A stretch of DNA of 64,000 bases. Source: Triglochin maritima. Its lineage: Eukaryota > Streptophyta > Magnoliopsida > Alismatales > Juncaginaceae. Location: positions 29,803,621-29,867,620 of the forward strand of contig OY821784.1 of assembly GCA_963682175.1 (NCBI GenBank), read 5' to 3'. The position numbers and the translations under genes are program-made. The notes under the pieces were generated by a model. That model made no database searches and had not been told where the DNA came from. It saw nothing but the letters and a program-made list of their open reading frames with translations. This document shows positions 25,062 through 38,491 of the stretch, piece after piece; the stretch's first letter is position 1; each line of letters opens with the position of its first letter.

Positions 25062-26301
25062 AGGCCTCTCTTGCAGTTGATAAGGCACGATGGGGGAGGA
25101 GGGAGTATTAAATAGGGGTCACATTCAAATTTGCATCGAGATATTGATGAACTGATCATAGGGGCAGGGCAATACATACAAATGATTTGCATTAAGGGGC
25201 ATTCTTTGAATATTCCTTCAAGAAATATAATATGAAACTAGACTCAAGACCCTTCCCTAACTCTGTATCTTAATCTATCTTTCATAGTCTCTTGTTCTGG
25301 TTTGCTTTGTTCGTGAGATTGTGAGAGTTTCGTCAAAAGTCCACGTGTGGACTCGGTCATACCTCAATAATATTTGTTCAAGTCTTTGACTTCCTTTATC
25401 GCAGTTGTCTTTCCCTTCTACAGAAATCCGAGAGATTTAAGAAAATTTCGAACTATTCTCCTTGTAAATAACCTACCAAGAGACTGGAGATATTTAGTAA
25501 TATTTGTTAGTCAGAGTAATTATATTATCAATAGATTCGTTTGGCATCATTTGAAAAAACTCATATTGATGAAGTAAGATATAGATTATGGTTTCTTCCT
25601 AAGTTGTTTCTAAAATATGTGAAATGTTTTAAGCGGTAAAACAAGAATTTATTTTATTGAATTTATTTTTAGTTATAGATCAATATAAGGTATTCATTGC
25701 CTTAGCATTCAAATTTGCTAATTTTTCACGTTCTTCTATTAGGTGCATAACCTTCTACCAAAGTTGTAGTAGTCATCTTTAATGATGGCTAAGTCGTAAA
25801 TTATTAGAAATGGGGCTCTGATGATACCAATTATTAAGTTTTAGAGGCTACTCTGTGTGTTATGATATAATGATTAATCACTGGTCGAACTTCTTAGGAA
25901 AATATGGTTGATGTGTTAGATTATATTTAGAGAAATCAAAACAAACACAAATAAAATAGATTTAAGGGGATAGTCTGGGATGAAAGCACATAGTCAAGCC
26001 ACTATCCTGAGAACAGATTCCACCCCTTCACGCACAAAATTAACTTACTTTCTGTTCCCAAGATACGGCCAACCCCAGCCATCTAGTCCAACACTAATGC
26101 AATCGAAATATCTAGTCGCTGAATACTTGAGTTTAGAAAACAGAAATGAACTTGATTTTGAAAGCTTTGGAGTGGAAAAGTGAAAAACTGATTTTTTTGA
26201 GAGCGAGAGTCGACAATGACGAGTTTGAGAGATGTGATTAACCTTCTTGTTTCTCATAAATTAATATTTTTTATGTGTTAGATAAACGGTTGCCAAGAAA
26301 C
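25062..26301. other. 3' flank of GGH
   Basis: This holds the GGH 3' UTR and intergenic DNA. The part at about 25181-25330 has a similar copy at about 35725-35870 (shared block TTTGAATATTCCTTCA and GAAATATAATATGAAACTAG). No gene is recognised in the rest. Confidence 0.4.
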
Positions 26302-26309
26302 GTTGGAAT

Positions 26310-26566
26310 TAGGGGTGTGCACGGACTGGTCCGGTCCGGATCGGATGGAACCGGTCCGGGTTTCGGTCCGGAGGTTTTCAATTTTTCGGGTCCGGTCTGG
26401 TCTGGTCCAGTTTTTTGTTTATTTAATTAAAAAAATCAGTTTTTGACCGGACCGGACCGATTCGGTCCGGTCTGGTCTTCGGTTCTCGAGTATCCGGTCC
26501 GGTCCGGTTTTCGGTCCGGACCCCTGATAAAAATCTGGTCCGGTCCAGACTGGATACTCATCCCTA
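26310..26566. mobile_element. Small hAT-type element built of GGTCCGG repeats
   Basis: This 257-bp element is flanked by a perfect 8-bp duplication, gttggaat (26302-26309 and 26567-26574), the length made by hAT transposases. The ends are short inverted repeats (TAGGGGTG left, TAGGGATG as right reverse complement). The interior is mostly repeats of GGTCCGG/CCGGACC. It has no coding capacity. Confidence 0.8.
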
Positions 26567-27120
26567 GTTGGAATGGATTTCGTTAATAAAACCAACTCAC
26601 ACGTTTTCAACGGGTGAAAGTGTTTTATTGAGTTATTTTATTTTTCTTTCAAAATTTCAAAAAGAACTTGTAAAAAAAATTCTTACAAGTGGAGGAAAGA
26701 AGGAAGTGGTCTTCCCACTTACCTTCCTATATTTTATTTTACGAAAGTATTTTAATAGAGTAGTTATATACGGACGCGAGCGTCCGTGACGCGTCCTACG
26801 TGGAATAACACGTCAGCTGCCAGTTCAGCGTCCAGTCAACCAAAACTTCTGCGCGGGGAAATGTAAATTACGAATTGTTGGGTGCGACGGTTCATTTCCC
26901 TGAATCACGATTTGTTGGGTGCGACGGTTCATTTCCGTGCGACGGTTCATTTCCCTAAATCACGATTAGACGGTTCGACTTCACGTACATCAGTAGCGGC
27001 GGTACAGCATTCGAGTAACTTTCCCCATTTCACCCGGAGTTCCTTTCCATACGCTCATCCAAAACCTTCATTGCTCCAAAACCTTTCCATTCCAGTAACG
27101 AAAACCAAGACAAGGCGAAA

Positions 27121-30100
27121 ATGGATCATTCTCTACCTGAAACCTCCATTGCTCCTGAAATTGTAGCCGCGCAGGTGTTTTGTCAACCATGTTCTTTCTG
27201 GTTCATTTTAAGGTTCATTATTGGCCTCTAACAATTTTTTTGTGTGGTTTAAGGGAAGCACGTACTACTTCCGCGAAACCAAGTGCGGTTTCGCGGCCCT
27301 TCACAAGCAGTTCGACCGGATGAAGGAGGAGGAGAAAAATGTCTTCCAACGGACGCCTTTCGGTCACTTCCTCAGCTTTCCTCACGTCACAACTGACAAC
27401 GAGATACTGGGTTGGTTCGTCGAACACTTCGACGCCAATGAAGTCGGTCTGAGAATAGCCACTGGGGTGGTCCCATTTACGGTAGAAGACGTCGCCCTTC
27501 TACTTGGACTAAGAGTACATGGGCAGAGAGTGGATATGGATGCCATGTACGTAGAGAAACGTGACGGGGTTAACCTCGACAACACCCAGCTACTGGGTCA
27601 TCTTACCGCCACGAGCAAGATGGGCGAGGAGGAGGAGCACGTCCGACTCCTTATTTCTATGATTTTCAATCATTTTTTGTTCTTCGATGGATCACTGCGA
27701 ACTAAAGCGTGGTACACGAAACACCTTAAGAACCTCAAGCGCCTCAAGAGATATGCGTGGGCAAATGCGGTTCACACTTTCTTGGTTGAAGGCCTGGAGG
27801 AAGCCCAACGGGACCTCTCGAGGAGGAGATCATCAGCGAACTTCTCTATGAAGCAGGGCTACGTGTCTGGTTGCGTTGCCGTATTACAAGTAAGCATCTT
27901 GGTTCGGAATGAGTATTGTGTCAGTCCGGAGTAGTGTTGGTTTATGTCCGGAATAAGTGTGTTGCCTGTCCAGAATAGTCCTGTATGTGTCCGGAATGAT
28001 TGTCTTGCCTGTCCGGAATACGTCTTGTGTCTGTCCGGAATACGTCTTGTGTCTGTCCTGAATAGTGTTGTCTCTGTCCGGAATAAGTGTCTTGAGGTTG
28101 TCCGGAATAAGTGTCTTGTGGTTGTCCGGAATGAGTGTTGTGTCAGTCCGGAGTAGTGTTGGTTTATGTCCGGAATAAGTGTGTTGCCTGTCCGGAATAG
28201 TCCTGTATGTGTCCGGAATGATTGTCTTGTCTGTCCGGAATACGTCTTGTGTCTGTCCGGGATACGTCTTGTGTCTCTCCGGAATAGTGTTGTCTCTGTC
28301 CGGAATAAGTCTTGTGTCTGTCCGGGATAAGTTTTATGTCTGTCCTCAATAGTGTTGTCTCTGTCCGGAATAAGTGTCTTGAGGTTGTCCGGAATGAGTG
28401 TTGTCTCTGTCCGGAATAAGTGTGTTGCCTGTCCGGAATAAGTGTGTTGCCAGTCCGGAATAGTCCTGTATGTGTCCGGAATGAGTGTCTTGTCTGTCCG
28501 GAATACGTCTTGTGTCTGTCCGGAATAAGTAATTTGTATGTCCGGAATACATCTGCGTCTGTCCGGAATAAGAGTTGTGTCTGTCCGGAATAAGAATTGT
28601 GTCTGTCCGGAATTAGTGTTTGGTCTTTCTGATTAACGTTATGAGACTGTCTTAGGGAAGTTATGTTTCTGTTTTTTAACTCATTCCTGTTTTCAGGTGT
28701 GGCTTTGCGAGAAGTTCAAATTGGGGGATCCCCGGTCAGCATTTCCACGGTTCAAGTGTTGGACCGAAATGTTTAGCAGACGCCAAATCCTTAGAAAATG
28801 GGAAGATCGAGGCATCAACTTGTCCCGGATATACTCGGGCCAATTTGAGTTGAAGGGCACCCCAAAACTCAGTGCACGGGAGCATTCACTGTTGTCAGAG
28901 GATCAATTTCCTCCTGCAGCAGCAACTCCCGCAGCGAAGGAAACACCTTCAACTCCTGCAGAAGCAACGGTCGCCTCGAAGGAAACACCTTCAACATCCA
29001 CTCTACCAAGGATACAACTCAGTGAATGCAGCATTCCATGTGACCCACTGCTACAAGAGTTGGAACTTAGTGAGGTGAAGACGAAATGGCTGCGAGCCGA
29101 AGCAGCACTTAGGGAGGCGACCGTTAAAATTAACAACCTGGAGGAAGAACTCCGGATCTCTCAAGAAGAGTGTCGTGAGCTGAGAGTCCGTGGGGAGGAG
29201 GAAGAGAGGGAAAAGAGGGAGGAGGAAGAGAGAAATAAGAGGGAGGCGGAGGAGAGGGAAGAGAGGGAGGAGGAAGAGAGAAATAAGAGGGAGGCGGAGG
29301 AGAGGGAAAATAGGGAGGAGGAAGAGAGAAGTAAGAGGGAGGCGGAGGAGAGGGAGAAGAGAGAGGAGGAAGAGAGGGAGAAGAGAGAGGAGGAAGAAAG
29401 GAAGAAGAGGAACGAGGAAGAGAGGGAGAAGAGGGAGGAGGAAGAGAAGAAGAGGGAGGAGAATGAGAGGAATAAGAGGGAGGAGGATGAGAAGAAGAAG
29501 AGGGAGGAGGATGAGAAGCATAAGAGGGAGGAGGAAGAGAGGAAGAGGAGGGAGGAGGAAGAGAGGAAGAGAAGGGAGGAGGAGGATGAGAAGAAGAGGA
29601 GGGAGGAGGATGAGAGGAATAAGAGGGAGGAGGAAGAGAGGAGGAAGAGGAAGGAGGAAGAGAGAAAAAAGAGGAGGGAGGAGGAGGATGAGAGGAATAA
29701 GAGGGAGGAGGAAGAGAGGAAGACGAGGAAGGAGGAAGAGAGAAAAAGGCGGAGGGAGGAAGAGAGGAAGAAGAGGGAGGAGGAAGACAGGAAGAAGAGG
29801 AAGGAGGAAGAGGGAGAGAAGAGGACGGAGGAAGAGAGAAAAAAGCGGAGGGAGGAAGAGGGAGAGAAGAGGAAGGAGGAAGAAAGGAAGGAGGAAGTTA
29901 TGAGGAGACAGGAGGAAAGAAAGAGGAAGGCTGGGGTTGCGCTTCCGCTTTTGCACCCTCAAAAAATGCGGACCATTAAACCACGCTTGCGCACAGAACA
30001 CATAGACGAAGCGCAAAGCAAATCTAGCCAATATGAGGCACAGAAGATTGCCGCAGAAAAACAAGAAGAAATAAAGGAGGCCGAAGAAGCCACCATAAAA

Positions 30101-30919
30101 ACAAAAGGGCTCGAAGAAGCCAGTGAAGAAACAGCGAAAGATGAACTGGCCGCCCATGTTTCGTCCACGAGGCCAGATGTGGATGAGACCGCCTTGAGAA
30201 CGCTGACCAATGATGAGGTACATCGTTTATTGAATGCAACGGCTCCCGAGCGAGAAGCAAAAGATATTATCTGGAGGGGGGTTCTCAGCATTATCAGCAG
30301 GGGTGATCTCAAGGAAATAATTTCGCGAGGCACAGAAATCACCAACGAAACTCTTGACGGCCTAATTGAGGTACTCGTCAGAAGAGGAGGGCAAAAAAAG
30401 GTGGTCTGCTTATCAACCTTCGAATCGGAAATGATTGTGGAGGGACAGGGAGAAGATATAAAGAAAGATTATTTACTCCCAAAAATTGAAGGACTTAATG
30501 TGGAGGAAGTCGTCATCGCACAGCCATGCTGTTTGTCCGGCCACTGGACTCTGTTCGTTGCCCACGGACCTCGATCAGAGTTCATTCAGTACAACAGCAT
30601 CTCCCGAACGCTGAAAAGAGGTGAAAATCCTAACCGTTTAGTCGGAACTCATGAATGCACCGCGTCTAAGATAGCGGGATTCTGGCGAGGGTTTTTGGCG
30701 GTCGAATGGCCACTGAGAGTTGACAGGAAGGGTAGCCAACGACAGCTAGCGGGGAGTAACGACTACGGGCCATACGTTTTGTACTGGATCAAGCATTTGA
30801 TGGAGAATGCTGATCCGACGAAGCCGAAGCAGAGCAAGGTTCTTCACCGTTTTAGAGGCGATTTGGCCAATTTCTTACTCGAAGACTCTGGGATGTGCGA
30901 TCAACAATACACGCCCTGA
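27121..30919 (+). CDS. MULE-encoded DUF1985/PMD-like protein with charged helix and Cys-less Ulp1-like domain
   Basis: Predicted exons are 27121-27174, 27254-27889 and 28697-30919, in frame with GT-AG borders, giving 970 residues with no stop. The start is the ATG at 27121; the frame at 27221 has no ATG and is better read as intron. Residues 19 to about 260 resemble DUF1985/plant mobile domain proteins (FQRTPFGHFL, VPFTVEDVALLLGLRV, YVSGCVAVLQ joined across intron 2 to VWLCEKF). Residues about 395-643 are almost only Glu, Arg, Lys, Asn and Asp, a long charged coiled coil or single helix. The C-terminal part resembles Ulp1/C48 SUMO proteases: catalytic His at about 846 (SGHWTLF) is present, but the usual Asp is Asn (QYNSI, about 863) and the usual Cys is Tyr (SNDYGPYVL, about 920). 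It is probably not a working protease. Intron 2 is filled by a TCCGGA array. Confidence 0.85.
27900..28660 (+). repeat. TCCGGA motif array 1 (intron 2 of the DUF1985/Ulp1-like gene)
   Basis: About 29 copies of a core TCCGG occur, mostly as TGTCCGGAATAAGTGT or TGTCCGGAATACGTCTTG, spaced about 20-30 bases apart. Part of the array (about 27923-28075) is repeated as a larger block at about 28141-28290. The array fills nearly the whole intron and stops before the 3' splice site. Confidence 0.93.
29184..29935 (+). repeat. Long purine-only coding tract
   Basis: Some 750 bases of the plus strand are almost only A and G. They encode the charged-helix region in repeats such as EEEREKREEEERKKR. The repeats are imperfect and vary in length. 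The long open frames on the minus strand (29051-30223) and in the second plus frame (29190-29903) are by-products of this composition. Confidence 0.9.
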
Positions 30920-31046
30920 AAATGTTTCAATTTTTTTTCCCAAAGTTATACATGTATACATGTTAAAATTACATAGACTATTTGAATGATTTATCAATAC
31001 AAGGACATTTGGTGTTGGTTTTTTATATATAAATGATTTTCTTTTT

Positions 31047-32027
31047 TCCGGACATACATGATACGTAATCCGGACGGACATATAACGTAATCCGGACAGA
31101 CAAACAATGTAATCCGGACAGCCTAATTACGTATTCCGGACATACTGGTAACTTAATCAGGACATAAATAAAACTTATTCCGGACGGACATATAACGTAA
31201 TCCGGACAGACAAACAATGTAATCCGGACTGCCTAATTACGTATTCCGGACATACTGGTCACTTAATCAGGACATAAATAAAACGTAATCCGGACATTGA
31301 TGTTACGTAATCCGGACATACTGGTAACTTAATCCGGACATAAATACAACTTATTCCGGACAGAAATTAACGTAATCCGGACAGACAAACAATGTAATTC
31401 GTACAGCCTAAGTACGTCTTCCGGACATACTGGTCACTTAATCCGGACATAAATAAAACATAAACCGGACATACTGTTAACTTAATCCGGACATAAATAA
31501 AACTTATTCCGGACGGACATATAACGTAATCCGGACAGACAACAATGTAATCCGGACGGCCTAATTACGTATTCCGGACATACTGATCACTTAATCCGGA
31601 CATAAATAAAACTTATTCCGGACAGACATATAACGTAATCCGGACAGACAAACAATGTAATCCGGACGGACATATAACGTAATCCGGACATACTGGTAAC
31701 TTAATCCGGACATAAATACAACTTATTCCGGACAGATATTAACGTAATCCGGACAGACAAACAATGTAATTCGTACAGCCTAAGTACGTCTTCCGGACAT
31801 ACTGGTCACTTAATCCGGACATAAATAAAACATAAACCGGACATACTGTTAACTTAATCCGGACATAAATAAAACTTATTCCGGACGGATATATAATGTA
31901 ATCCGGACAGACAAACAATGTAATCCGGACGGCCTAATTACGTATTCCGGACATACTGGTCACTTAATCCGGACTTAAATAAAAAATAAACCGGACAGAC
32001 ATATAACGTAATCAGGGCAGACATACA
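31047..32027 (-). repeat. CCGGA motif array 2 (between the convergent MULE genes)
   Basis: About 40 copies of CCGGA occur, as TAATCCGGACAGACA, TTATTCCGGACGGACA or TAAACCGGACATA, every 20-30 bases. The orientation is opposite to array 1 (minus-strand reading TGTCCGGATTA). Higher-order units of about 110-120 bases repeat several times. The array lies in the space between the two 3' ends. Confidence 0.93.
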
Positions 32028-32221
32028 ACAAACCAAAATTACTTAATATATTTGTCGCCATGAGAAATTAATTCACAAACGATCAAGCAAAGAAAGGGTT
32101 GAATCTTATGCAATAATACAATGACTTTCAACAAAATTACATACAATGACTTTCAACAAAATTACAATGACTTTCAACAAAATTACATAGGAATAATTCC
32201 AACCAAGGACAAATACAATAA

Positions 32222-35004
32222 TCAAGGAGGAACTCTCTCGTAATGCAAATTCATGTCCCAGTCATCGAAATCGTGATCCCCCGGTTTGGGTGCTGCAGGG
32301 TGTAACGGGGGTAGAGCCTTCTTCCTGTTGATTTTCTTAACGTTACTTTTAATTATTTTCTCAGACAAAGAAATCCGTCGTTTGCTCGGCGGTCTGCCTT
32401 TCCGTATTGTCTTATCCGGATTGAGAACGGATGTACCAGCGAACACAGGATCAGGTCGTTGCATACGTTCCTTAAGCAACTCAAGTGCCTCTACCGCCTG
32501 AAGATATCTGTCGTTTGAGTCGAAAGCGGCCTCGGCGATCCAAAGCGCACGACCCATTATGTCGTCGTGGCGACGAAGCGCAACGTTCCCCGTTATGCCG
32601 CTTTGAAGAGGAAACTTGACTCCATAGCTCCTTCGGATATCCTTCCTCCATCGGTGGACGATGTAAGACTCGGGGAGCAACGCGTTTGGATGTATTCGGG
32701 CAATAACAACATAAACGTGACAACATAGGATACCGACGTGATAAAACATCCTGCAATCGCATACCCACTTCTCATCGATAATTTGCACTGTGAACCGTTT
32801 CGACAATGGGAGGATATGTGTCAATACATGTTCGGTCACGTTGAAGTGCAATGTGTCGTCCTCGTTGAACTCATCCTTGATGTCGCAGTACATCATCTTC
32901 CCAATTTCTAACTGCACCTTCTTGAAGACACCCACCGTATACAACTCGCTCAATTGCCTCTCGAATGGATATTTCGAAATCAATTGCGGAGCCTTATGGT
33001 GACAATCGAAATCAGACTGAGCTTCCTTCTCATACTTGTGGCGTAGTGCGAGTTCGTATTGTTGAACGAACTGCTTAAGTGTCGTCCTTGATGTGAGGTA
33101 CTTATCGAAGAAGGCGTTCATACCCTCACTTCTCTGGGTTGATGCCATTCCGGCGGAAAAACAATCCCGCGAAAATGCAGGTACCCAGTGCTCTCGAATT
33201 GCATAAATGGATCAGAGCCAATTATTGTCGTGCAACTCGAAATCATCTAGAAATCCCTGCCAATTCCGCTCGAATTCTGCCGTAGTCTTGGAATCGAATA
33301 CACAGTTGTTGAGGTCAAACAACGTATGCTCCCGGTACTTCTTGGGCAGCTTCACAGGGGCCTTATTCATTATGTGCCATATACAAAATCTGTGCCGCGC
33401 TTCAGGGAACACAGTCCTCACAGCCGAAGCTATGGCGCCACATTGGTCTGTTATGATCGCCGGGGGGCTTGTATCTGCACACAACGCGATCAAGATAAAA
33501 ACATATGTTAATCCGGACAGAAATAACGTAAACCGGACAGACGTCAAGGGTAAACCGGACGAGCAAAAGACGTAAACCGGACAGACGTAAGGGATAAACC
33601 GGACGAGCAAAATACGTAAACCGGACAGGCGTCAAGGGTAAACCGGACAGACGTAAGGGATAAACCGGACGCGCAAAAAACGTAAACCGGACAGACGTAA
33701 GGGATAAACCGGACGAGCAAAATACGTAAACCGGACAGACGTAAGGGATAAAAAGGACGAGCAAAAGACGTAAACCAGACAGACGTAAGGGATAAACCGG
33801 ACGAGCAAAAGACATAAACAGGACAGACGTAAGGGATAAACCGGACGAGCAAAATACGTAAACCGGACAGACGTAAAGGATAAACCGGACGAGCAAAAGA
33901 CGTAAACCGGACAGACGTAAGGGAGTAACCGGACAGGCACACAACGTAAAATGGACAAAGCCGGACAAAATAAAACACGTACCGTTCATGCACGTCAACC
34001 ATGTTTGGAACAACCAAATGTAATTTTGTGTCGTCTCGGAAGAGAGGAGTGCGCAACCGAGTAGGACGGACTGGTAGTGGTGATTTACCCCCACAAATGG
34101 GGCAAAAGGCATGTCATACTTGTTTGTTATGTATGTTGTGTCGAAACATATTGCATCTCCAAAGTAAGAGTAAGCAGCTCGAGAACGACTGTCGGCCCAG
34201 AACACATTTCGTAGTCTGCCTTCGTCGTCCATATCCATTACGTAAAAGAAGCGGGAATCATTCTTCTGCATCCTGATGAAATAATCTTGGATAGCTTGCG
34301 CATCTCCTGGTCCCATTTTGAGGTTTCTAACCTCGTTCACAACATTCCTGCGAAACATAATTTTTATGACAAAGCTAAATGCGTAACTTCAACCAGGTTA
34401 AGTGGAGAATAAATAACCTTAGGTCCCGCTCGTTGAAAGACAATTTATCGTGACCTCCAGCTTCGACCACAAAAGATTGCATGGTCTTGGCGGCAGATAT
34501 ACCGGCAGCATCATTGCACGAAATGCGTGCTCTGGCGGACTCCGGGACGGATCGTTTTTGTCGGAGGAAGCGCATCTGGTCTTCCGACAACATGGCGTGA
34601 TTATGTTCGAGATCTACGTAGTTAATTACGTAGCCTCTGGATGGATTACCGGAGACCCTAATCCGAGCAGTGCATTCGACCCTACCGGATAACCTATGTT
34701 TCGGTCTACCTTCACCTTGGTGTCCGGGAGCATTACCTTCCTTTGAGCAAGTAAGAGTGGCCCGTATTACAACACCATGACCGTAATGAGATTGCCTTAT
34801 CTTCACACCAAAACCACCGGAATCGGTGTATGAAACGTAAAATGCTTTGGCTTCTTCGAAGGAAGGAAAATTCATCATCACTTGAGGGACGTTGGAGGCA
34901 TGAGCCGGCTGTGAGGACACATTTACGAGTGCCATTACAGTACAACAAAAATGGAGGAAGGAGAGAAGAAGGAATGGTTCGTAGGATCGGAATAACCTAG
35001 ACAC
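32222..35004 (-). pseudogene. FAR1/FHY3-type MULE transposase, one in-frame stop
   Basis: The predicted minus-strand exons are 35004-34418, 34347-33983 and 33474-32222, with GT-AG borders and matching phases. A later ATG at 34935 (MALVNVSS) may be the true start. Exon 1 holds a FAR1 DNA-binding domain (FPSFEEAKAFYVSYT, then Cys/His residues ending DLEHNH). Exon 2 has the MULE domain with FDTTYITNKY. Exon 3 has IITDQCGAI and CIWHIMNK, then STQRSEGMN, which together give the D-D-E residues. A SWIM-type zinc finger follows (WVCDCRMF, ILCCHV) and a basic RKGRPPSKRR segment near the end. The only break I see is TGA (plus 33212-33214) between NNWL and SIYAIREHW. Intron 2 is filled by array 3. Confidence 0.88.
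33498..33970 (-). repeat. CCGGAC motif array 3 (intron 2 of the transposase)
   Basis: About 18 copies of CCGGAC alternate as GTAAACCGGACAGACGTAAG and GATAAACCGGACGAGCAAAA, spaced about 25 bases. The intron runs from the donor at 33982 to the acceptor at 33475, and the array fills most of it. In the sense of the transposase transcript the motif reads GTCCGGTTTA, close to the GTCCGGAATA of array 1. Confidence 0.93.
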
Positions 35005-35137
35005 TCATATTTGTATCTCCGTGACGCGCCAAACAATAAGAAAGAAGACGGAGGACGTGCTGATTTGAAAAACATTAAATGCGATGGTGGACGCATCGGG
35101 AAAATAAAACAACAGCAACAAAAAATCAGGAGTAAGT

Positions 35138-35285
35138 AGTTCGTCTGTCCGGAATAAGTGTTCCGTCTGTCCGGAATAAGTATTCCAACTGTCCGGAATA
35201 AATAGTAACTGTGTCCGGAATAAGTTACGTGCTTGTCCAGAAACTAAAGAAAATGACTGATGTGTGTGTCCGGAAAAAATGAATT
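35138..35285 (+). repeat. TCCGGAATAA motif array 4 (upstream of the transposase)
   Basis: Five TCCGGA cores, mostly TGTCCGGAATAAGT, lie 130-280 bases upstream of the first ATG of the transposase, where its promoter should be. The motif is the same as in array 1 and in the same plus-strand orientation. Confidence 0.85.
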
Positions 35286-35639
35286 TAATAAAGAGAAGGG
35301 AAGAAATAGGAGGACGAATGTGTAGGAGCGCCAACATGATGAAAGAATGGAGTGATTTGAGACGCATTAATGAGGGATGGCGAGGGATGACGAAATTTGT
35401 ACGAAACAAGGAATAAACTAAACAAAGGAATTGTTTCTGGGGAGAGAGCGAACTCAGCCGCGTCTGCTGACTGGGTTGCCCACATCAGCCATTCTGCTGA
35501 CTGGGTTAGCAGCGTCCATGACGCGAAGCGTTCAACAAACATTATTTTAATATATATATTCGGTTTATTTTTTGTTACTTATTTTGCCACATTGTGTTTT
35601 AATTCCATTCACAAGTTGTTCTGACAAGTACGGATTATA

Positions 35640-35947: not shown

Positions 35948-37796
35948 GTGAAATTTTTTGTAAGTCAGCAAATATTTGAAACAACCAATGACACGATAAG
36001 ATGGATGAAACAAGTTGTCATCGGAGTCAGATTTTTTTGGGTGATATCATCCTATAAACCACAAGCAGATAATCAGATGAATTGTTATCTGAGATACGAT
36101 AGCAGAAAGGAAATGGGTTGCCGGGATATTGATATTGCAGTACGGAGGAACACGAAAAGAAAGGGTCGCGAGTGTTTTTTGATAAAGATGGTCGAGCAAT
36201 AAGAGCGTGATGGATGAGTCATAGTTTCTGATAGTTCTCATGGTCAGCATAGTTCTCAAGGTCAGCATAACCACAGACTTGCAGTTTATCTAGAGGGTCA
36301 CCGACAGATCAGCGATCTTAGTCCTGGGGCTAAGAAAATTGTTCGTGAGATGACTAGGCACGAACGAAATCACGTAACATCTTGTTGGCGGTAAAGGAGA
36401 AATTCACAGAGAATAATCCAAATTAGACACATTTATAACTGTAGAGAGTACATGAGGCGGGTAAAATCTGAAGACAGGAATACCGCTGAACAGTTTCTGC
36501 ATCAGGTAGAGCAGTATCAGTACTGGTATTGGATTCTGGCGGATGAAGAAACTAATGTCGTCACTCACGCATTCTTGTCACATCTGACGTCGGTTAAGTT
36601 GTTACGCACATACCCTTTGATAATTTGCATTGATTCAACGTATCGGCTAAGCAATTATGAAGGATCAGACCGAGCGTAGTTACCGGTGGGTATTAGAGAA
36701 GTTGCGAGATTTGTTATGCAGTACTGTCAGCCGGACTGCAATAATAACGGACCGGGAGTTAGGTCTTATGCGACCAGTGAGAGAGGTTTTTCCTGACTCT
36801 GCTTATTTACTTTGCACCTGGCATATAAACAAAGACGTATACAACTACGCATACTACGCATTCGGCAAGACCAAGCAGTTGGCAGAGACTTTGAAGTGTG
36901 AAAAGTGGAGGAAAATCATGCTTTCTACTTCAGAATCCGATTATAATAGAGTTGTGCGTACTCTAAAAGATTCGTATAGATCTTGACCAGCTATCACGGA
37001 GTATCTGGACGACACGTGGTTAGTGCATAAAGAAAAGTTTGTGTTGAATTGGACGAACAAAGTCCTTCATTTCGGCAACACCACGAACTGTAGGGTCGAA
37101 AGTGCTCATTCGGCTCAGAAAGACTGGATTACTTCATCGACTGCAACTCTGGACACTCTTTTCGACCGCGTCAACGCGGCTATTGAAATGCAGCTGACGA
37201 ATATTCAAAACTTTCTTGAAGAGTCGAGACGTCCAAATTTGACTAACTACATAAATGATTTATATCAGTATATAAATGGTCAAATTTCACATCACTGCTT
37301 CTCATTGTTGAGTCGGGAGTTTAAGAGAATGCAAGACTTAAGTGATCAAGTTTAATATCGTTGTGGGTGCACTTTTCTGACTTCCCATGAGATTCCTTGT
37401 GCATGTACCATCCACGGTTGTATTGAGTCAGGTGAAGAAATTTATTTAGAGCAGATTCATCCATTCTGGAAAACACTTGTCATTGGAGAAGGAGTCGAAA
37501 TGCCAGAGTTTGTGGATCAGTCATCACAAGACGTCGAGAATTTTCGGAACTTCGTTGATGAGATTTCGGGGACCGACCTTGCAGTAATTCGTAGTGCCTC
37601 TCGTGTTTTATACATGCAACTACTCCCCGATCAGTGGAACTATGTAGAGCTCGTACAAAATACTAAGGTACGAGGTCGACCAAAGGAAAAGTCTACACTA
37701 CGGGACCCGAGTGCCTTCGAGTATGCTGAGCGAGGTCATGGTCGATCTTCTAGTAGTCGGAGCAGGGGTTGTGGTCGATCTTCTAGTTCGTCTTGA
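35948..37796 (+). pseudogene. Second MULE transposase, degraded
   Basis: An N-terminal domain related to FAR1-like MULE proteins (35948-36202) is followed by a stop-containing part with LAVYLEGHRQISDLSPGAKK. The MULE domain has IICIDSTYRLSNYE (first Asp), IITDRELGL (second Asp) and CTWHINKDV. About 35 residues normally found between STYR and the YRWVLEKL segment are missing, and the frame changes there near 36660. Later parts contain RVESAHSA, a SWIM-like CGCTFLTSHEIPCAC in which the usual Cys-x-His is Cys-x-Cys, and KVRGRPKEK with DPSAFEY, both usual near the C terminus of these proteins. It is not functional as read. Confidence 0.82.
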
Positions 37797-37929
37797 TCGT
37801 CCGCAAACATGAGTACAAGATCTGGAATGACGACATGTTTGCTGTTATTATTATAAGTTTTCTATTTTTTCGCAGTAAACATGTTCTTCCAGTTATTATA
37901 TATAAGTTTACTATTTTATTCATCCTGTA

Positions 37930-38491
37930 GTGTCTGGACGGATTGACGTAGATGACTTCCCATATGTGGATAGACTTTCAGGAATCATCTTACCATTTCT
38001 GGGGCGGTGGAATGATGTACGTGCTGATGACAATTGTGGATTTCGATGCGTTGCCAATATTTTCTATGGTGGTCAAGACAATTGGTTTTACGCCCGTTGT
38101 GCAATTTCTAATGAGATAGGGGCGCATCCCATTTATGAGCACGTTTATTATGACAGTGTGGTACATGCTCGTCAGCGAATTATTTGGGGGCGGAGGACCT
38201 TGTGGCGAGGATCACTATATGAAGATTTGGTGCAACTTGTTCCCGATTGCCAATTTTTACAAGTGTGCAATTTTGTATTTCTCAGTGGGAACAGATGGTT
38301 CGTTGTACCCGTGTATTACAGTGCCCCCTTGGGAGAGTCCGTCTACCATGACGAAGTCATGCAGAGAGTTCATTATTGCTCATTTAGGGAGTTACAAACA
38401 TTACATTAGCTTAGAATTAGCCGAGGGATTCCCAGTATCTCCTATAGAGACCCTGTGGTTTCAAATGCAAGATCGGAGTGTTCTTGGATAG
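37930..38491 (+). pseudogene. OTU-type cysteine protease domain, frameshifted
   Basis: The first half, in one frame, has ADDNCGFRCVANIFYG, the catalytic Asp-Cys motif of OTU proteases. The second half is in the next frame: YKCAILYFS, then HYISLELAEGFPVSPIETLW, which holds the expected catalytic His region and the PxxxxxW tail seen in plant MULE-linked OTU proteins. The frame changes near 38265-38280, so a frameshift splits the domain. OTU domains fused to or next to MULE transposases are known in plants. The gene follows the transposase directly, and the two may once have been one polyprotein. Confidence 0.75.

What the first reader, a model, noticed from the sequence alone, without database searches (positions are those of the whole stretch)
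26758..35542. MULE whose noncoding DNA is filled with one short motif: candidate self-recognition (anti-silencing) system
Seen: about 90 copies of a TCCGG/CCGGA core in four separate noncoding parts (two introns, the intergenic space, the region upstream of the transposase) and nearly none in exons. Known: Arabidopsis VANDAL elements lack long terminal inverted repeats and encode VANC proteins that bind short motifs arrayed in their own noncoding DNA and remove silencing. Inferred: the intact DUF1985/Ulp1-like protein here may play that part for the TCCGGA motif. The core holds both CG and CHG methylation sites. The motif family differs between blocks (GTCCGGAATA, ATCCGGACA, AACCGGACGAG), as if binding sites spread and drifted within one element.
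Basis: partly seen in the sequence, partly recalled or inferred. Interest (0 to 1): 0.9.

Follow-up and report, generated by a model that had tools for sequence, protein, structure and literature searches.

The report
Transposon with self-tagging binding-site arrays
A jumping gene in a plant fills its own noncoding DNA with about a hundred evenly spaced copies of one short tag, and it carries a gene whose protein probably recognises that tag to keep the element from being silenced, as in Arabidopsis VANDAL elements but with different parts.

Summary
Window 26758-35543 is a Mutator-like element with a 9-bp target duplication. Its transposase has FAR1, MULE and SWIM domains. A second gene, tail to tail with it, encodes a 970-aa protein (my exon model) with a plant mobile domain (PMD), not DUF1985. 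Four noncoding blocks hold arrays of a directional motif, TGTCCGG[AT][AT]TA, every 22 bp. TCCGGA occurs 70 times in 3.7 kb of noncoding DNA and twice in 5.1 kb of exons. Each block is in one strand only.

A relative whose PMD exon is 68% identical (dS 0.9-1.5) has almost no alignable noncoding DNA outside the arrays. Yet it carries the same 22-bp arrays in both introns and between its genes. Gene-less copies with similar ends carry the arrays too. Some derivatives use a one-base variant, GTTCGG, through a whole array.

Best reading: binding sites for the element's own PMD protein, a VANC-like sequence-specific anti-silencing system in a FAR1-type rather than VANDAL MULE. Binding and demethylation are inferred, not shown. 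The autonomous parent of the GTTCGG arrays was not found, so motif-protein co-variation is open.

The parts
26749..26757 (.). left target-site duplication ATTTTAATA
   Evidence: same 9 bp at 35544-35552; the match to the window starts at 26745-26763 in 23 of 29 other sampled copies, at 26731 in 1 and at 26903-26937 in 5
26758..35543 (.). whole Mutator-like element, 8786 bp; short degenerate inverted repeats at the ends (by eye)
   Evidence: TSD; ends similar to gene-less copies: both ends in L048, L049, L052, L055, right end in L051; best L048, left 47 bp 85%, right 32 bp 91%
27121..27174 (+). PMD gene exon 1
   Evidence: exon model drawn from GT/AG sites and open frames, 970 aa; no RNA evidence
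27254..27889 (+). PMD gene exon 2, plant mobile domain
   Evidence: PF10536 E=1.3e-8, at its cut-off of 34.9 bits; dN/dS 0.12-0.29 against two relatives
28697..30919 (+). PMD gene exon 3: linker, long charged repeat (coding tandem repeat of 24 bp, 29193-29890), C-terminal domain without Pfam match
   Evidence: C-terminal part 52% identical to L047
27905..28620 (+). array A in the PMD-gene intron, about 33 units of TGTCCGGAATA...
31047..32025 (-). array B between the two genes, about 45 units of TGTCCGGATTACGT...
32222..33474 (-). transposase 3' exon (MULE end, SWIM); in-frame TGA at 33214-33212 in this copy
   Evidence: PF04434, PF10551
33513..33985 (-). array C in the transposase intron, about 20 units of TGTCCGGTTTA...
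33990..34358 (-). transposase middle exon, MULE domain
   Evidence: PF10551 E=1.5e-16; 89% aa identity to L047
34375..35004 (-). open frame with the FAR1 DNA-binding domain of the transposase; the exon ends somewhere within it (34400-34935 was used in the exon counts)
   Evidence: PF03101 E=1.2e-14
35149..35275 (+). array D upstream of the transposase, about 5 units
35544..35552 (.). right target-site duplication ATTTTAATA

Best explanation
The arrays are clustered binding sites, about two helical turns apart and all facing one way within a block, for a DNA-binding protein encoded by the element. The best candidate is the 970-aa PMD protein. Shown: the arrays, their spacing, direction, noncoding confinement, conservation of the core across deep divergence, unit gain and loss, presence in gene-less partners, and purifying selection on the PMD exon. 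Inferred: that the PMD protein binds TGTCCGG[AT][AT]TA, that the 22-bp phase lets many molecules line up on one face of the DNA, that occupancy removes or blocks DNA methylation and so keeps the element's own genes expressed, and that it acts in trans on gene-less copies. It would work like the VANC/VANDAL system but in a different MULE lineage and with a different protein domain.
For: Confinement to noncoding DNA and strand uniformity. 214 of 251 spacings are exact multiples of 22. In 13 of 13 arrays aligned without anchoring on CCGG, positions 1-11 are more conserved (0.86-0.98) than 12-22 (0.63-0.87). Window versus L047 with arrays masked: the matches are exons and their edges, plus stretches of 55 and 79 bp upstream of the transposase found in separate searches; dS is 0.9-1.5 in the PMD exon; yet L047 carries arrays in its PMD intron, transposase intron and intergenic space. 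Three PMD subfamilies (window, L047/L054, L065) have GTCCGG arrays. PMD dN/dS 0.12-0.29. 16 of 16 other MULE or PMD loci, 3.3-4.1 kb each, lack the motif. TCCGGA-N16-TCCGGA occurs 49,603 times in the genome against 11 for the reversed control. Gene-less copies share ends and arrays. The published VANC21 system has the same anatomy: a short motif in same-orientation arrays in introns, intergenic and upstream DNA, tandem-repeat turnover, C-type and T-type motif variants, tandem peptide repeats in the variable part of VANC (PMC5735166, Results and Discussion read).
Against: No binding or methylation data. The PMD match is marginal: the window exon is at the Pfam cut-off and the N-terminal half from L047 is below it (14.2 bits). 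No fold could be modelled (pLDDT 44 and 38). The transposase also has a FAR1 DNA-binding domain and could be the binder. No counterpart of array D was seen upstream of the transposase in L047. The spacer half of the unit is also partly conserved between elements (0.75 against 0.92 for the core). Co-variation between motif class and protein class was not shown: the parent of the GTTCGG arrays was not found. In the two GTTCGG arrays the best-conserved 10-bp window starts at unit positions 20-21, not 1-3, and the core/spacer contrast in L053 is small (0.92 against 0.87). The PMD exons seen in L047, L054 and L065 carry stops or frame breaks, and L064, a copy of the L065 type, has an interrupted exon and no array in the 2 kb fetched.
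Confidence: 0.66

Rival explanations
1. The arrays are binding sites for the transposase itself (FAR1 domain), used in transposition or in transposase-driven hypomethylation, as with Spm TnpA or MURA.
For: The element encodes a FAR1 DNA-binding domain. PMC10398659 reports demethylation linked to TnpA and hypomethylation of terminal repeats by MURA (passage read). Gene-less copies keep the arrays.
Against: The arrays are internal: no GTCCGGnnTA lies in the 363 bp from the left end to the PMD start codon, and the last site of array D is about 270 bp from the right end. The shared ends consist of GACGCG/CGCGTC-type sequence instead, which resembles the FHY3/FAR1 site as I recall it. The largest arrays are in introns and between the genes.
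Confidence: 0.15
2. The arrays recruit a host factor (activator, splicing enhancer or boundary protein) and the PMD protein has another role.
For: Two arrays are intronic and one is upstream of a gene. Host PMD proteins act with PP7L in gene expression, and it is not known whether that complex touches chromatin (PMC9899485 passages), so a PMD need not bind DNA itself.
Against: Array B fills the space 3' of both genes, where splicing or promoter roles are unlikely (inference), and a uniform one-base switch of whole arrays (GTTCGG) is easier to explain by an element-specific binder (inference). The DOWN motif of the MORC1 promoter is CATGCAGTTT, unlike this one.
Confidence: 0.11
3. Neutral minisatellites: one unit slipped and spread by chance, and the shared core is inheritance only.
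For: The units are true tandem repeats with higher-order structure, and the intron array varies from 606 to 917 bp between copies with near-identical exons.
Against: Noncoding DNA is otherwise almost unalignable between window and L047 and synonymous sites are near saturation, yet the same 11-bp core, 22-bp phase and three of the four positions persist. The core exceeds the spacer in 13 of 13 arrays. CpG-containing cores should decay fastest in methylated repeats (general knowledge).
Confidence: 0.06

Closest known systems
VANC/VANDAL anti-silencing (Arabidopsis VANDAL21, VANDAL6; Hosaka 2017 PMC5735166, Results and Discussion read; Sasaki 2023 PMC10398659, Introduction and passages read)
   Same: MULE with degenerate ends; second gene with a tandem-peptide region; short motif in same-orientation dense arrays in introns, intergenic and upstream DNA; fast tandem-repeat turnover; C-type and T-type motif variants
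   Different: Motif TGTCCGG[AT][AT]TA rather than YAGTATTAY or AGTTGTCC/AC; PMD rather than DUF1985/DUF287; transposase with an N-terminal FAR1 domain; host unnamed; activity untested
VANC relatives with an Ulp1 domain (KIU/Kaonashi) in eudicots, Sasaki 2022 EMBO J (not held; only passages of the review PMC13317346 seen)
   Same: MULE with a second gene; motif-directed anti-silencing; I recall from the abstract that helical periodicity of the motifs matters
   Different: No Ulp1 match here; whether that study covered PMD- or FAR1-type elements could not be checked
PMD genes captured by MULEs (Ikeda 2017 PMC5418596 and MULE survey PMC6446971, passages read)
   Same: PMD gene in a MULE, often antisense to the transposase; Ikeda et al. 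speculate that the captured protein serves anti-silencing
   Different: The passages read describe no target motif or arrays; here the PMD comes with a conserved 22-bp array system
Spm TnpA and MURA (demethylation of the element by its own protein; passage in PMC10398659)
   Same: element-encoded protein lowers methylation of its own family
   Different: sites are subterminal (TnpA, recalled) or in terminal repeats (MURA), not in intron and intergenic arrays

Membership tests
VANDAL (MULE group 45) | transposase domain set without FAR1 (SWIM, CCHC, as listed in PMC6446971) | tested here: not met
   FAR1 N-terminal plus MULE plus SWIM, the set listed for the Jittery group
VANDAL (MULE group 45) | transposase falls in the VANDAL clade of a tree | not tested
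   no tree was built
VANC protein | DUF1985 (and DUF287) | tested here: not met
   exon 2 lists only PF10536 at E<=10; the scan's filters drop most matches above about 0.1
VANC-like system | short motif arrayed in one orientation in noncoding parts of the element | tested here: met
VANC-like system | arrays evolve by tandem-repeat gain and loss between near-identical copies | tested here: met
   29 best-scoring other copies differ from the window by at most 2 nt in exon 2 (chosen by that similarity); 21 distinct intron sequences of 606-917 bp in the 27 measurable loci, window included
VANC-like system | tandem peptide repeats in the variable part of the second protein | tested here: met
   coding 24-bp repeat 29193-29890
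VANC-like system | protein binds the motif | not testable with these tools
   needs EMSA, DAP-seq or ChIP
VANC-like system | expression removes DNA methylation in trans | not testable with these tools
   needs transgenic plants and bisulfite sequencing
VANC-like system | motif and protein co-vary between related families | tested here: inconclusive
   three PMD subfamilies all GTCCGG; GTTCGG arrays found only in gene-less stretches L050, L053; the search for the parent did not complete
Jittery-group MULE | N-terminal FAR1 and C-terminal SWIM around the MULE domain | tested here: met
   PF03101, PF10551, PF04434; no tree
MULE | 8-11 bp target-site duplication | tested here: met
   9 bp ATTTTAATA here; L048 ATTTAAAAA, L052 TTTTAGTAT

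The most novel reading that the evidence does not exclude
Sequence-specific anti-silencing evolved, or persists, outside the VANDAL lineage: FAR1-type MULEs use a captured plant mobile domain protein as the recogniser, and this genome catches a change of specificity in progress, with whole arrays switched from GTCCGG to GTTCGG. It would make PMD a DNA-recognition module and tie host PMD silencing proteins (MAIN, MAIL1) to their counterpart in transposons.
Probability: 0.4. Interest if true: 0.85.

Novelty: new variant of a known kind. Interest (0 to 1): 0.72.

Why it matters
If true, motif-array anti-silencing is a recurring strategy of plant DNA transposons and not a quirk of VANDALs. It would give the plant mobile domain, whose function Ikeda et al. 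called undetermined in 2017 (passage), a testable role as a sequence reader. It would also give a well-populated natural experiment (1,777 sites of a PMD-exon pattern and 49,603 phased motif pairs in one genome) for studying how a DNA-binding specificity and its sites change together.

Tried and rejected
DUF1985 and Ulp1 labels: not listed by Pfam at E<=10; the best PDB sequence matches of the C-terminus have E 1.5 and 1.6 and are unrelated. By eye the C-terminus has an H...N pattern reminiscent of C48 peptidases with Tyr where the catalytic Cys would be; this is recall, not a test, and not claimed.

A link to the host MAIN/MAIL1 DOWN motif was checked and dropped: CATGCAGTTT in the MORC1 promoter.

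Single-sequence structure models were uninformative, so no fold search was made. The protein search found no relatives at E<=0.001 among 1,572 candidates; that collection may hold few plant proteins.

Errors found and corrected: two query translations (C-terminus and MULE part) were out of frame; their identities are not used. One search has the in-frame ones against L047: PMD 68%, exon-3 N-terminal part 57%, C-terminus 52%, MULE 89%, FAR1 74%, SWIM 65%. One more query (TP_mid) was out of frame and was left out of that search. L009, one of the 30 loci, is the window itself, so there are 29 other copies.

CCGG-anchored unit statistics make the core invariant by construction, so the unanchored alignment (seeded with a window-like unit) is used instead.

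Limits of the controls: the 16 control loci are only 3.3-4.1 kb each and several belong to the same family, so they do not exclude arrays elsewhere in those elements. The 29 copies are the best-scoring of 40 scored and 1,206 candidates, so their near-identity in the exon is by selection. They cover only the PMD part, so arrays B, C and D were not checked in them; in 3 of the 30 loci (L019, L028, L031) the intron could not be measured, though motif copies are present. The dN/dS for L065 (0.29) includes a frame break near the end of its exon and is somewhat too high.

Literature: the lists returned by the searches (each capped) showed no title reporting this array in a FAR1-type MULE; for (motif as text) 10 of 34 papers were listed and none was opened. 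The most relevant paper (Sasaki 2022, EMBO J) is not held, so novelty is provisional.
Full report
WHAT IS THERE. The window lies in a genome of 1.06 Gb (species not named; a plant by its FAR1, PMD and MULE content). Positions 26758-35543 form one Mutator-like element flanked by the 9-bp repeat ATTTTAATA. Of 29 other sampled copies, 23 match the window from 26745-26763 on, 1 from 26731 and 5 only from 26903-26937. The ends form only short, degenerate inverted repeats, judged by eye. Two genes run tail to tail. On the minus strand is a transposase with FAR1, MULE and SWIM domains. On the plus strand is a gene that I model with three exons and 970 aa: a plant mobile domain in exon 2 (PF10536, E=1.3e-8, at the curated cut-off), a long charged region encoded by a 24-bp tandem repeat, and a C-terminal domain with no Pfam match. 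This copy's transposase has one in-frame TGA at 33214-33212, so this copy may not make a full transposase.

THE ARRAYS. Four noncoding blocks are made of 22-bp units: A in the PMD-gene intron, B between the genes, C in the transposase intron, D upstream of the transposase. TCCGGA occurs 70 times in 3715 noncoding bp and 2 times in 5071 exon bp; a Markov control gives about 1. Strand-corrected, the shared core is TGTCCGG[AT][AT]TA, and each block is in one strand only: 22/0, 0/37, 0/16, 4/0. Aligned without anchoring on the core, positions 1-11 of the unit are better conserved than positions 12-22 in 13 of 13 arrays from the window and six loci. Spacing is regular: 214 of 251 successive distances are multiples of 22 and 19 more are off by one. 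Twenty-two bp is about two turns of the helix.

DEEP CONSERVATION. L047 (C1:223501-233500) is a diverged relative: PMD exon 68%, exon-3 N-terminal part 57%, C-terminus 52%, transposase 65-89% amino-acid identity, with dS 0.9-1.5 and dN/dS 0.12-0.26 in the PMD exon. L047's PMD exon is split over two frames, so that copy is not intact. With arrays masked, DNA alignment to L047 finds exons and their edges; separate searches add stretches of 55 and 79 bp upstream of the transposase. Yet L047 has the same arrays in its PMD intron, transposase intron and intergenic space; an array upstream of its transposase was not seen. L054, of the same PMD type, has arrays, and so does a third PMD type, L065 (20 GTCCGG-type sites to 1 GTTCGG-type; dN/dS 0.29). 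Of the two loci fetched for that third type, the other (L064) has its PMD exon interrupted and no array in 2 kb. The motif has thus been kept while the surrounding noncoding DNA turned over.

TURNOVER. In the 29 best-scoring other copies exon 2 differs from the window by at most 2 of 636 bases, while the intron between exons 2 and 3 ranges from 606 to 917 bp, with 21 distinct sequences in 27 measurable loci, window included. This is the dynamics reported for VANDAL21 arrays.

GENE-LESS PARTNERS AND A SECOND MOTIF CLASS. L048, L049, L051, L052 and L055 are copies of one family, about 1.6-2.4 kb, without the gene and with arrays such as GTCCGGAATAAGTGTATTTG. L048, L049, L052 and L055 match both ends of the window element and L051 the right end; L048 and L052 show 9-bp duplications. 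L050 and L053 hold arrays of GTTCGG in place of GTCCGG (26 of 26 and 28 of 31 GTnCGG sites), next to transposase fragments of 47 aa that are 57% and 45% identical to the window's. The L050 derivative matches the left end (47 bp, 81%) and a subterminal stretch of the right side (174 bp, 82%); in L053 the GTTCGG array lies between stretches of the gene-less family. In these two arrays the best-conserved 10-bp window starts at unit positions 20-21 rather than 1-3, and in L053 the core/spacer contrast is small. The autonomous parent of this class was not found, because the genome search that would list it did not complete. So co-variation of motif and protein remains open.

GENOME SCALE. TCCGGA-N16-TCCGGA occurs 49,603 times, against 11 for the reversed control. 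A degenerate PMD-exon pattern with up to 3 mismatches occurs 1,777 times (907 + 870), control 0; of these 100 were listed. Sixteen of sixteen other MULE or PMD loci, several of one family, have none of the motif within 3.3-4.1 kb.

HOW IT PROBABLY WORKS. The arrangement is that of the VANC21 system (PMC5735166): a TE-encoded protein binds dense, same-orientation motifs in the TE's own noncoding DNA and removes methylation there. The parallel extends to tandem peptide repeats in the protein, C- and T-type motif variants, and degenerate ends, which PMC10398659 notes in VANDAL elements and suggests may help escape small-RNA silencing. The most likely reader here is the PMD protein: its exon is under purifying selection, the arrays were seen in each of the three PMD types sampled, and the transposase's FAR1 domain has a more natural target in the GACGCG-rich ends (the FAR1 site is recalled). 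Ikeda et al. (PMC5418596, passage) speculated that PMDs captured by MULEs serve anti-silencing; this locus would supply the target. Binding, demethylation and action in trans are inferred.

MEMBERSHIP AND NOVELTY. By transposase domains it is not a VANDAL (no tree was built), and by domain not a VANC (no DUF1985 listed), so it is filed as 'works like', not 'is'. Whether Sasaki 2022 (EMBO J, not held) already covers PMD or FAR1-type elements is unknown; what I recall of its abstract names DUF1985, DUF287, Ulp1 and helical periodicity. Hence 'new variant of a known kind'.

Noticed in passing
window 36657-38409: Part of a second MULE (MULE domain 36657-36986, + strand) followed by a frame at 37930-38409 that by eye looks like an OTU-type cysteine protease (no Pfam hit at 0.001).
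   Followed up: no
window 26300-26560: GC-rich GGTCCGG run just outside the element; it inflates TCCGG counts but is not part of the 22-bp arrays.
   Followed up: partly
L053 4900-6100: A GTTCGG array directly abuts GTCCGG units of the gene-less family, with a clean boundary between the two motif classes.
   Followed up: partly
L054 8396-9189 (minus strand): Tubulin-like reading frames beside the element copy, possibly a host gene near the insertion (by eye only).
   Followed up: no
L064: A copy of the third PMD type interrupted by other DNA, with no array in the 2 kb fetched.
   Followed up: partly
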